Positions 5,488-9,790 of a DNA stretch of 9,790 nt are shown in pieces. The stretch covers positions 1-9,790 of the forward strand of contig WJIO01000020.1 of assembly GCA_014730235.1 (NCBI GenBank), read 5' to 3'. Under the pieces are notes generated by a model. It saw only the letters and a list, made by a program, of their open reading frames with translations, ran no database searches and was not told the origin of the DNA. This DNA is from Candidatus Poribacteria bacterium. Its GTDB lineage: Bacteria > Poribacteria > DTPJ01 > WJIO01. Made by a program: the position numbers and the translations under genes. The first letter of the stretch is position 1; each line of letters begins with the position of its first letter.

Positions 5488-5517
5488 ATTATACTATCTG
5501 TAATCATTGATTGTCAA
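5488..5517 (-). promoter_or_regulatory. Consensus promoter of the thi operon
   Basis: Read on the minus strand, TTGACA (5517-5512) and TATAAT (5493-5488) are both perfect matches to the housekeeping consensus, with an 18-bp spacer. Transcription would begin near 5481. That leaves about 38 nt before the ThiD2 ATG, too short for a TPP riboswitch. Seen directly; promoter activity is inferred. Confidence 0.8.
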
Positions 5518-5540: not shown

Positions 5541-5569
5541 TTGACATTTATTCATAAATAATATATTAT
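5541..5569 (+). promoter_or_regulatory. Near-consensus promoter of the CHAT-STAND-TPR gene
   Basis: TTGACA (5541-5546) and TATTAT (5564-5569, one mismatch) are separated by the optimal 17 bp. Transcription would start near 5576, only a few bases before the GTG at 5580. This favours the downstream TTG at 5622 as the real start codon. Seen directly; activity is inferred. Confidence 0.75.
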
Positions 5570-5610: not shown

Positions 5611-5614
5611 GGAG
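5611..5614 (+). promoter_or_regulatory. Ribosome binding site deciding the TTG start
   Basis: GGAG lies 7 nt before the in-frame TTG at 5622. The upstream GTG at 5580 has no Shine-Dalgarno and sits almost on the predicted transcription start. This site therefore argues for translation from 5622. Confidence 0.55.
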
Positions 5615-5621
5615 AATATCA

Positions 5622-8600
5622 TTGAATAAAGCTGTTAAATGCCTTATCACAAAAGATTTTGTTATTATTGATGATTTAAAATACAATTTTGAATCAAGCA
5701 TTACTCAGGAGGAAATTAAATCTTACCAAAATCCATCCTGGGATGAATTACTTGAGTCTAACGCTGAATATCTAAGAGAAATGGGGGAAAAGCTTTTTCA
5801 AAGGGTGTTTAGTGGAGAAGTTCTTCAGAAATATAAGTCCACAACCCCTAAACCATTGGCTTTAAATTTAAGCAACGAGTTATCCGCATTGCCATGGGAG
5901 ATTATGTTTGATAGTTCAGATTGGATTGCTCGTAAACGCGGAATATTCAGAGGTGTAAAAACCGAACAGGTATCACCAGATATAATACCAAAACCGGGAA
6001 TTTTGAAGGTATTAGCGGTTGTAGCTGACCCATTGCTGGAATCTGAGCATGAACAGATATGGGGAGATATTATTCTGAATTCGGTATGCCATATAGACAA
6101 CCTTAGAAATCTGGCTTCTGAGAGATTTCCCCTGGAAATAAGACTGCTCAGTAATGCTACAAAAGTAAAACTCCAGAATGAAGTAAGCAAAAATTATCAT
6201 GTTATCCATTACATAGGACGTATAAGTGTTAAATCTCTGGCCCTGGAAAGCAGACATGGGTTTCTGGATTTAGCCCATGAAGAATGGCTAGAAGAACAGT
6301 TAACAGCAGCTATTAGAGGTGGAGCGCGGTTGTTTATTCTGGATGCTGGTTTTTCAAAGGATAATAATCATTTAGTTCACAGAATGGTTAAGTTTATAAT
6401 AAACACCGGTATTCCTGTTGTAATAGCTACCCAGGGAAAAATATCCGAATATGGGGAAAATGTTTTTATAAGAACTTTATACGGTAGGTTATCCACGGGA
6501 AAATCCATTGATGAAGCTATCATGGACACCCGAAGAAATATGTCAACAGAGTGGCAGATAAATCCCTGGGAATGGACCATACCAGTAGTTTTTGTGAATG
6601 ACTCTTTGTTGGAATATGAAATGCCATTAAACCTTATAGATGCTGAAATGACAGAGATGATCAGCGACTCTAAAACAAGAGTGTTGGAAAAAAATAACGG
6701 GAAAGCTAACAAGATGATGAAGCGTGAAGAGAATTTTGTTGGTAGAAACAGGGAAATAAGTGAAATACTTCGCAGTCTTGATCCTGATGCGGAGGAATTT
6801 AAAAATATTATATGTCTTTATGGTGAAGATGGTATAGGGAAAACATCTATAGCTATGGAAGCTGTAAGACGTATGGAACAGTGGTATGACGAAGTATTCT
6901 GGTTTTCAGAAGGCTTTGATCCATTAAAACATATATCTAAAGATGGCAGGTTTCTTGACCGTTTGGCCAGGAAGTGTGAAATCAACCTGAAACTTAATAA
7001 TAACCCAAAGGATTTATCCAGAAAAATCAAAGAGAGAATAAAAGATGGCTATAAACGTCTTATCGTAATTGATGGTGCTGATAGTATAGTGGAATCAGGT
7101 CAATTCATTAATATTTTTCGCGAACTTCCACAAACTCTTGGAATTTTATTAATAACCAGTAAACCCACGGCCCTGAATGCAGGTCATATTTGTGTGGGCC
7201 CAATAGGTGGCAAGGAAGCAAGTGCCCTTATAAAAGCCTATACAGCTTCTAGCAATACCCAGCTATCATCAGAAGAAATTGACGAAGCTGTGCTTTTTGC
7301 CGGCGGTCACACTCTGATTTTACGTTTGCTGGCATCTATAGCATCTATTCCCGGTAAAAGTCTGAAATATATTATCAATATTCTGAAAGAGGAAAAAGAA
7401 AACATTTTAGATGGAGTATTAAAACACTCTCTGGAAATGTGCGGCGATGAATGTAAAGAAATTTTATACGCCGTAGGCTTCTTCTATCCAACAACAGGTT
7501 TGAAAACACTCAAGCAAATAGCCAAACTTACTACCGCTGACTTTGACAAAGGGTTAAAACAGGCCAGAGACTTGGCTATGGTGGAATATTATGAGGATGC
7601 AGAAAGATTTAGCCTGCATCCAATTATCCGTCAGGAAGTAATTAGATTTATCGAATCACCTGAGAAAAAGGCACTTTACCAGGATAGATTTATTGAGCTT
7701 TACAGTGAGTTTTTAAACGCAACTATTCCCATGACAAATCCCGAAGTAGCAGCTAAAGCCCTTGGCGCACCCATGCTTCAGGGGAAAACATCGGAACGGA
7801 TACAGCAGGCAGCAAAGGAAATACTGGTAAAACCAGCCCTGCGTATGATGGAATCAGAGCTTAATAATTGTCTGTTGGCCCTGGAATGGTCTCTGGAAAA
7901 AGATGATGCTGATACAGCTACTAAATTTCTCGACAATCTGGATGATTTTCTCCGATCTAACGGTTACTGGAACGAGGCGATTTACTACAGCAAAAAAGTA
8001 GCGGAAAGCTGGCATAAACACGAGGAATACAGAGCAGAGGCGGCATGTTTATTTAACCTGTCTGTCCTATATCAAAATCGAGGATCACAGTATGAAGCCT
8101 TGATAAATTATAAAGATGCTCTTGAGGCGGCAGAAAAAGCCGAAGATAAGGAATTAGAAGCTGAGATATTAAACGGTCTTGGTATAGCATACCGGGATAA
8201 AGGTCAATGGGATGAAGCTATCGAGTACTTCCAGAAAGCATGTGAAATATTTAAGGAAACGGGAAAAGAATCTGAAGAGTTAGCCGTTATCAATAGGATC
8301 GGACTTATTTATCAACAGACAAATCGCTGGAATGAAGCGATAACTTATTTTGAACGTTCTCTTGAAGTATCCAGGAAAATCAATGATAAAAAGGGTGAAG
8401 CAACAGCTTTGAGCAATCTGGCAAGATGTTATCAGATGGAAGGTGATGAATACCAGAAAGTTATAGAGCTTTATGAGAGTTCCCTTGAAAAATTTGAAAA
8501 CCTTGGTATGGAAAAGGAAAAGCAGGATATTTTATTCAGTCTTGGTATAGTTAATCAGGAATACGAAGATCTGGATGCTGCTATGAATTATTATCAGCAG

Positions 8601-9065
8601 GTGCTGGATATTAGCATTAAGACAGATGATTATGCTACTCAAAGAACAGCTTTGAATAACATAGCGTTTATACACAGTAGAAACCAGGAATGGCTGGAAT
8701 CTGCCAGCGCATGTCTTGAAGCTTTTCAGCTTGCTATGAAAACAGGTTCAGCAGAAGCAATTGACTCCTTAAGAACCATAATGCAGATCAGCCGTTATAT
8801 GCTGGATGATAACCAATTTGTGCTATCAGCCCAATTATCCCAGCAACTTTCTCAATTGATACAGGAATCTGAAACAAAAGATGAAGCTATGCGTACTGCC
8901 CTGGCTATATGTCATGGTGTGTTTACCGTAATTAATTTTGTATCAGCCAGCGAAGGTGATAAAAATAGTGAATTATACAGGGAAGCCATGGAACTTGCTT
9001 TTACTTTAGATGAAAAGACAAATTCAGCTTTGGATTTAAACCAATGGTTAGAAGGAGAGGAATAA
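5622..9065 (+). CDS. CHAT (inactive)-STAND NTPase-TPR protein
   Basis: This is a cytosolic multidomain signalling protein of about 1,147 residues from the TTG; the frame opens at a GTG at 5580, and the numbering below counts from that GTG. An N-terminal CHAT domain (caspase-like, about 20-345) shows the ALPWEIM block and IPVVIATQG...FIRTLYGRLSTGKSIDEAI. The catalytic His of GHG is Arg214 (HYIGRI), and the catalytic Cys is Gly257 (LDAGFS), so peptidase activity is unlikely. A STAND NTPase follows: FVGR (386-389), Walker A GEDGIGKT (415-422), Walker B LIVIDGAD (Asp498), LITSK, GGHTL and LHP. Seven TPR-like units then repeat every 40 residues (anchors at 800, 840, 880, 920, 961, 1001, 1041). The helical tail is unassigned. 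By analogy with other STAND proteins, the TPRs may sense a ligand and drive oligomerisation. The PspC gene follows after one base. Domain calls are firm; function is unknown. Confidence 0.9.
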   Translation: MNKAVKCLITKDFVIIDDLKYNFESSITQEEIKSYQNPSWDELLESNAEYLREMGEKLFQRVFSGEVLQKYKSTTPKPLALNLSNELSALPWEIMFDSSDWIARKRGIFRGVKTEQVSPDIIPKPGILKVLAVVADPLLESEHEQIWGDIILNSVCHIDNLRNLASERFPLEIRLLSNATKVKLQNEVSKNYHVIHYIGRISVKSLALESRHGFLDLAHEEWLEEQLTAAIRGGARLFILDAGFSKDNNHLVHRMVKFIINTGIPVVIATQGKISEYGENVFIRTLYGRLSTGKSIDEAIMDTRRNMSTEWQINPWEWTIPVVFVNDSLLEYEMPLNLIDAEMTEMISDSKTRVLEKNNGKANKMMKREENFVGRNREISEILRSLDPDAEEFKNIICLYGEDGIGKTSIAMEAVRRMEQWYDEVFWFSEGFDPLKHISKDGRFLDRLARKCEINLKLNNNPKDLSRKIKERIKDGYKRLIVIDGADSIVESGQFINIFRELPQTLGILLITSKPTALNAGHICVGPIGGKEASALIKAYTASSNTQLSSEEIDEAVLFAGGHTLILRLLASIASIPGKSLKYIINILKEEKENILDGVLKHSLEMCGDECKEILYAVGFFYPTTGLKTLKQIAKLTTADFDKGLKQARDLAMVEYYEDAERFSLHPIIRQEVIRFIESPEKKALYQDRFIELYSEFLNATIPMTNPEVAAKALGAPMLQGKTSERIQQAAKEILVKPALRMMESELNNCLLALEWSLEKDDADTATKFLDNLDDFLRSNGYWNEAIYYSKKVAESWHKHEEYRAEAACLFNLSVLYQNRGSQYEALINYKDALEAAEKAEDKELEAEILNGLGIAYRDKGQWDEAIEYFQKACEIFKETGKESEELAVINRIGLIYQQTNRWNEAITYFERSLEVSRKINDKKGEATALSNLARCYQMEGDEYQKVIELYESSLEKFENLGMEKEKQDILFSLGIVNQEYEDLDAAMNYYQQVLDISIKTDDYATQRTALNNIAFIHSRNQEWLESASACLEAFQLAMKTGSAEAIDSLRTIMQISRYMLDDNQFVLSAQLSQQLSQLIQESETKDEAMRTALAICHGVFTVINFVSASEGDKNSELYREAMELAFTLDEKTNSALDLNQWLEGEE

Positions 9066-9315: not shown

Positions 9316-9790
9316 ATGAACGACAAAACGAATGTGTTATTTGTTGTGGTGGATGATCTGCGTCCTGAGTTAAACTGCTATGGTAAAGAGCAGATTATAT
9401 CACCGAATATCGATAATTTGGCCAGAGACGGTCTGTTATTCGAACGGGCCTACTGTCAGCAGGCTGTATGCGCTCCTTCGCGATGCAGTGTCCTCAGCGG
9501 CTGCCGCCCGGATACGACAGGGATATATAACCTTTCCACACCTCTAAGGGAAGGAATGCCGGATGTCCTGTCAATGCCTCAGCATTTTAAGAATAACGGT
9601 TATACCACAGTCTCTATCGGTAAAGTCTACCATCATCCAAAGGATGATCTGGAAGGCTGGTCTGAAGAACCTTTTCAATCAAAAGGTGACTGGAAAGGTC
9701 GCGGTTATCTGACAGACGAAGCTATGGAAGCCATGAAAAAGAATGAAGAACTGCTAAAACAGCGTAATGACCGAAGGGTTGGCCTGGGCC
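9316..9790 (+). CDS. Iduronate-2-sulfatase-like sulfatase (partial, runs off the window)
   Basis: This is the N-terminal 158 residues of a type I sulfatase, which hydrolyses sulfate esters using a formylglycine made from a cysteine. The start is ATG with AGGTG 6 nt upstream, 9 nt after the PspC stop, so it probably belongs to the same transcript. [13 protein letters not shown] gives the metal-binding Asp13-Asp14. CAPSR at 52-56 is the C-x-P-S-R modification motif, with Cys52 the formylglycine precursor. [19 protein letters not shown] and SIGKVYHHP resemble the iduronate-2-sulfatase group rather than arylsulfatases. There is no signal peptide, since the catalytic fold begins at residue 5, so the enzyme would act in the cytosol on imported sugars unless exported otherwise. 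It needs a maturase (FGE or anSME) not seen here. The true substrate is uncertain. Confidence 0.93.

What the first reader, a model, noticed from the sequence alone, without database searches (positions are those of the whole stretch)
6198..6350. CHAT domain has lost both catalytic residues
The protein keeps the overall CHAT sequence pattern, but the position of the catalytic His in GHG is Arg214 (codon CGT at 6219-6221). The position of the catalytic Cys in LxAC is Gly257 (GGT at 6348-6350). Each is one base away from the canonical codon (CAT and TGT). The 43-residue spacing matches the spacing expected between the real pair, so the alignment is credible. The rest of the 1,150-residue frame is intact, so this is not simple pseudogene decay. 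A conserved pseudo-protease effector on a STAND sensor would imply signalling by binding rather than cleavage.
Basis: partly seen in the sequence, partly recalled or inferred. Interest (0 to 1): 0.72.

Follow-up and report, generated by a model that had tools for sequence, protein, structure and literature searches.

The report
Dead protease on bacterial immune-type sensor
A large sensor protein from an uncultured bacterium (Candidatus Poribacteria) carries a protease domain in which both cutting residues have been replaced, while all 112 related domains compared here keep them; the protein may therefore signal by binding rather than cutting, or may be a recently disarmed gene.

Summary
The gene at 5622-9065 (+) encodes CHAT-STAND-TPR. 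At the two catalytic columns it has Arg (CGT 6219-6221) and Gly (GGT 6348-6350), 43 residues apart. Three alignment methods agree on the columns. In a survey not selected on these residues, all 112 other CHAT domains aligned keep His and Cys, including the nearest full-length relative (another Poribacteria genome, 35% identical) and the rest of its clade. Of the 11 CHAT columns at least 95% conserved, the window loses exactly these two. The frame, P-loop and Walker B are intact, promoter-like and ribosome-binding sequences are present, and CHAT does not evolve faster than the rest of the protein. So cysteine-protease catalysis is almost certainly lost, on the window's own branch. Whether the dead domain is a conserved pseudo-protease cannot be shown: no relative closer than order level is held, so Arg/Gly rests on one sequence. 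Retained function by binding is my best reading (about 0.5); a recently disarmed effector is the main rival. Catalytically dead caspase-like domains in related systems are already described, so this is a variant of a known kind.

The parts
5541..5569 (+). promoter-like site TTGACA-17-TATTAT directly upstream of the gene
   Evidence: 11 of 12 matches; consensus match only
5611..5614 (+). Shine-Dalgarno-like GGAG, 7 bases before TTG 5622
   Evidence: sequence
5622..9065 (+). CHAT-STAND-TPR protein, 1147 aa, preferred TTG start (the longer frame opens at GTG 5580)
   Evidence: start aligned with the ortholog in G001
5778..6578 (+). CHAT domain (PF12770)
   Evidence: 52-56 bits, over the curated cut-off
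6219..6221 (+). Arg200 (CGT) at the catalytic His column
6348..6350 (+). Gly243 (GGT) at the catalytic Cys column
6732..7073 (+). STAND/AAA NTPase core (AAA_16, NB-ARC matches)
6822..6848 (+). P-loop GEDGIGKTS (Walker A), intact
   Evidence: GIGKT identical in the G001 and G141 homologs
7056..7073 (+). Walker B RLIVID, intact
8106..8750 (+). TPR array (sensor/scaffold repeats)
   Evidence: TPR_12 5.9e-35
8757..9062 (+). C-terminal helical region, the most conserved part against G001 (50% identity)

Best explanation
A STAND (NLR-like) switch protein whose N-terminal CHAT effector has become a pseudo-protease. [quoted passage not shown] Inferred: the TPR/C-terminal part senses a trigger, the NTPase switches and probably oligomerises, and the CHAT domain no longer cuts but gives its output by binding: as a scaffold or adaptor for another protein, as a decoy or substrate trap in its old peptide groove, or as a dominant-negative subunit. 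No partner is encoded next to the gene in this contig.
For: Dyad loss is unique among 112 other aligned CHATs, including the other four members of its clade. Of the 11 CHAT columns at least 95% conserved, the window keeps 9 and loses exactly the two catalytic ones; if two losses fell at random among 11 columns, this pair has chance 1/55. Under unconstrained decay the chance that both dyad codons are hit before any nonsense mutation is about 5e-4, and that the second is hit after the first about 1.5%; the 1147-codon frame has no stop or frameshift. Relative-rate counts are 53:36 (window:G001) in CHAT against 62:46 in the rest of the part compared, so there is no CHAT-specific relaxation. CHAT identity to G001 is 37%, against 25-50% elsewhere. 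Promoter-like and ribosome-binding sequences are present. Precedent: inactive caspase-like effector domains proposed as dominant-negative regulators or peptide-binding domains (PMC7159879), pseudo-orthocaspases (PMC6426788), and the pseudo-caspase CHAT1 of Csx29 (PMC10028731).
Against: Arg/Gly is seen in one metagenome-type draft genome only; no relative closer than order level is held, so conservation of the dead state is untested. The window's CHAT branch is somewhat longer than its sister's (0.98 against 0.70). It also differs at several 85-95% conserved positions where G001 does not, such as Leu95, Ala256, Ala266, Met270 and Leu323. Two point changes can be very recent, so an intact frame does not prove present function. 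No partner gene is known.
Confidence: 0.5

Rival explanations
1. A recently disarmed effector: the active, potentially self-harming CHAT was inactivated by point mutation in this lineage, and the protein has no function now or is on its way to a pseudogene.
For: All relatives are active-type, so the loss is private to this branch. The window branch is somewhat longer and the region 521-753 is also accelerated (40:23). A related gene (L164) is already split by an in-frame TAA, so decay may occur in this clade.
Against: One hit would suffice; the second exact hit before any nonsense change has chance about 1.5%. All other CHAT columns at least 95% conserved and the NTPase motifs are kept. The broken relative L164 keeps its dyad, so there decay did not begin with it.
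Confidence: 0.33
2. The domain is still an enzyme, using other residues (for example His193/His196 with Ser245, or Cys7/Cys155) in a changed active site.
For: His193 and His196 are kept, and Ser245 lies two residues after the lost Cys.
Against: His196 is a general CHAT position, 98% conserved beside an intact dyad. Cys155 is not in the ortholog and no Cys lies near column 243. All other CHATs surveyed keep the residues lost here.
Confidence: 0.06
3. Sequencing or assembly error in the draft contig.
For: The contig is a short (9790-base) piece of a 451-contig draft with 4.8% contamination.
Against: Two independent single-base errors at exactly the two catalytic codons, without any frameshift in 3.4 kb, are very unlikely; neighbouring genes are intact.
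Confidence: 0.04
4. The pseudo-CHAT works in trans with an active caspase-type protease of the same cell, as an adaptor or inhibitor (a special case of the best explanation).
For: The genome has no other CHAT match but one Peptidase_C14 protein with intact GHG and DTC motifs on another contig.
Against: The two genes are on different contigs, no link between them is known, and C14 and CHAT are different families.
Confidence: 0.07

Closest known systems
CHAT-STAND-TPR proteins with an active-type dyad (homologs in G001 Poribacteria, G141, G363)
   Same: Domain order CHAT-STAND-TPR; same clade in the CHAT tree
   Different: They keep His and Cys; the window has Arg and Gly
Csx29 (TPR-CHAT of Craspase, type III-E CRISPR)
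   Same: CHAT fold with TPR; 43-residue dyad spacing; includes a pseudo-caspase CHAT1 region (PMC10028731)
   Different: Csx29 has an active CHAT2 in the same chain, no STAND domain described, and is activated with Cas7-11 by target RNA; the window has one CHAT and it lacks the dyad
SAVED-CHAT (PDB 8tl0)
   Same: Canonical CHATs related to the window's match its CHAT domain (E 6.6e-17), GHG and NAC motifs aligned
   Different: SAVED sensor instead of STAND-TPR; keeps His and Cys
Pseudo-orthocaspases
   Same: Caspase-like domain with the His-Cys dyad replaced in intact proteins, some with TPRs (PMC6426788)
   Different: Peptidase C14 p20 family with other replacements (such as Tyr/Ser), abundant in photosynthetic bacteria; here a CHAT with Arg/Gly, single case
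Inactive caspase effectors of vWA-MoxR ternary conflict systems
   Same: Catalytically dead caspase-superfamily domain in effector position of an NTPase-based system (PMC7159879)
   Different: Multi-gene vWA-MoxR systems; the window gene stands alone with its own STAND domain

Membership tests
CHAT domain (PF12770) | Profile match above curated cut-off over the domain | tested here: met
   52-56 bits against cut-off 24, positions 2-282 of 289
CHAT domain (PF12770) | Catalytic His-Cys dyad (defines the active peptidase, not the fold) | tested here: not met
   Arg200/Gly243; 112 of 112 others H/C
CHAT domain (PF12770) | Caspase-like fold, dyad at the ends of adjacent strands | tested here: inconclusive
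   Model of poor quality (pLDDT 38, 3 sequences), though strands 194-199 and 237-242 end at the two columns
STAND NTPase | P-loop and Walker B with NB-ARC/AAA match, followed by repeats | tested here: met
   AAA_16 35.1 bits (cut-off 32.6); GEDGIGKTS and RLIVID; NB-ARC 23.2, just under its cut-off of 23.5
CHAT-STAND-TPR subfamily (as found here) | Same domain order and common clade | tested here: met
   Clade of five with support 0.998; pair with G001 0.976; domains of relatives
Pseudo-protease (conserved non-catalytic relative) | Catalytic residues absent | tested here: met
Pseudo-protease (conserved non-catalytic relative) | Dead state conserved among close orthologs under purifying selection | not testable with these tools
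Pseudo-protease (conserved non-catalytic relative) | No measurable peptidase activity | not testable with these tools
   Needs an assay

The most novel reading that the evidence does not exclude
A STAND immune-type receptor in which the CHAT protease has been turned into a non-catalytic signalling module, so that the activated receptor acts by protein binding (adaptor, decoy or substrate trap); I found no earlier description of such a case on a CHAT-STAND receptor in the papers searched.
Probability: 0.4. Interest if true: 0.55.

Novelty: new variant of a known kind. Interest (0 to 1): 0.4.

Why it matters
CHAT domains on STAND receptors are generally taken to act by cleavage. A receptor kept with a dead CHAT would show that the domain has a second, binding function, and would be a natural catalytic-dead mutant for finding what CHATs bind. 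The survey also shows how strict the dyad is: none of 112 other domains lacks it, so the case is an exception and not a common variant in this part of the family.

Tried and rejected
Four scans of viral contigs for CHAT relatives found none. The single-sequence scan of genome contigs found none; the alignment scan found G001's record and an Ardenticatena locus. A direct search of solved structures with the window CHAT found nothing; a profile of canonical CHATs found SAVED-CHAT. dN/dS was not computed: at 35% protein identity synonymous sites are expected to be saturated. The idea that dyad-less CHATs are common in this clade was tested and rejected. The idea of a second CHAT in the same genome supplying activity was tested and rejected for the 92%-complete assembly. 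A link to a neighbouring effector gene was rejected: the nearest neighbours are thiamine-synthesis genes on the other strand and a sulfatase.

Full report
What is there. The window is a whole 9790-base contig of a draft genome of 5.5 Mb (92% complete, 451 contigs). Its only relative in the same order is G001, whose contig has the same length (10743) as the record found as Candidatus Poribacteria SpSt-970, DTPJ01000831. The gene in question runs from 5622 (TTG; GGAG 7 bases upstream) to 9065; the frame is open from GTG 5580. A promoter-like site TTGACA-17-TATTAT ends at 5569, which would leave almost no leader for the GTG, so TTG 5622 is preferred, in line with the aligned start of the G001 ortholog. 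The domain order is CHAT (52 bits), STAND/AAA NTPase, TPR array and a conserved C-terminal region.

The dyad. At the catalytic His column the protein has Arg200 (CGT 6219-6221) and at the catalytic Cys column Gly243 (GGT 6348-6350), 43 residues apart as in Csx29 H615/C658 (PMC10028731). The alignment is not in doubt: it is gap-free between the two columns against the 35%-identical full-length ortholog, which has 'HFIGHTA' and 'QNSCHS'; it is reproduced by profile-profile comparison with canonical CHATs at probability 99.7; and by two multiple alignments. Canonical CHATs in turn match the solved SAVED-CHAT chain 8tl0 with GHG and NAC aligned (identity of 8tl0 from PMC11417357).

Is it rare? I collected most of the CHAT-region matches that a profile of the window plus G001 listed in 150 genomes of another class, and those of the window's phylum, without regard to the dyad. 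In the HMM alignment, 108 of 108 others with letters in both columns are His and Cys. With further homologs added and realigned by MAFFT, 112 of 112 are. The sample is mostly from one class outside the phylum, so it says little about distant CHATs.

Closest relatives. The tree of the CHAT domain puts the window with G001 (support 0.976), then G363 and G141, then G495 (support 0.998 for the five). All four others keep His and Cys, so the loss most simply lies on the window's own branch. Four more distant homologs found with the same profile also keep both.

Decay or function? Of the 11 CHAT columns at least 95% conserved, the window keeps 9 and loses exactly His200 and Cys243. The branch of the window is moderately longer than that of G001 (0.98 and 0.70), but the same mild excess is seen outside CHAT (53:36 in CHAT, 62:46 in the rest of the part compared), so the CHAT domain is not specially relaxed. 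Under free decay the chance of both dyad codons changing before any nonsense change is about 5e-4; given that one was lost, the second follows before a nonsense change with about 1.5%. These figures ignore indels, and they carry the bias that the case was picked out of a scan. They favour a frame that is still under constraint with a free active site, but two point changes can be recent, so they do not prove it.

What it may do. P-loop GEDGIGKTS and Walker B RLIVID are intact, so sensing and switching should still work. The genome has no other CHAT match and one unlinked C14 caspase-like protein with an intact dyad. The most likely output is binding, with the partner unknown. Such roles have been proposed for the inactive caspase-like effectors of vWA-MoxR systems, about 70% of which are dead (PMC7159879), and pseudo-orthocaspases are a described class (PMC6426788). 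Hence I file it as a new variant of a known kind, not a new category. That it works like a STAND receptor with a non-cutting effector is an inference; that it is a member of the CHAT fold family but not of the active CHAT peptidases is shown by sequence.

Limits. The structure model is too poor to use.

Noticed in passing
window 5488-5517 (-): A perfect TTGACA-18-TATAAT promoter-like site (12 of 12) faces the ThiD2/ThiE/ThiC thiamine genes, divergent from the promoter-like site of the CHAT gene.
   Followed up: no
L049 and L078 (G141:C202, G141:C272): Two nearly identical CHAT-STAND-TPR genes in one genome that differ mainly in the TPR array, both running off contig ends; suggests recombination of near-identical repeats or a split assembly.
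   Followed up: no
L164 (G495:C486): A CHAT-STAND-TPR homolog split by an in-frame TAA after the STAND core while its CHAT keeps His and Cys.
   Followed up: partly
L160 (G000:C38:498-1169): A large protein with a C14 caspase domain (GHG and DTC intact) after a long repeat-rich N-terminal part, the only C14 match in the window's genome.
   Followed up: partly
window 9316-9789 (+): Sulfatase gene cut by the contig end.
   Followed up: no
L002 1239-1553 (-): In G001 a short PspC-like frame overlaps the end of the ortholog gene and the neighbours are folate-type genes; gene order is not shared with the window.
   Followed up: no
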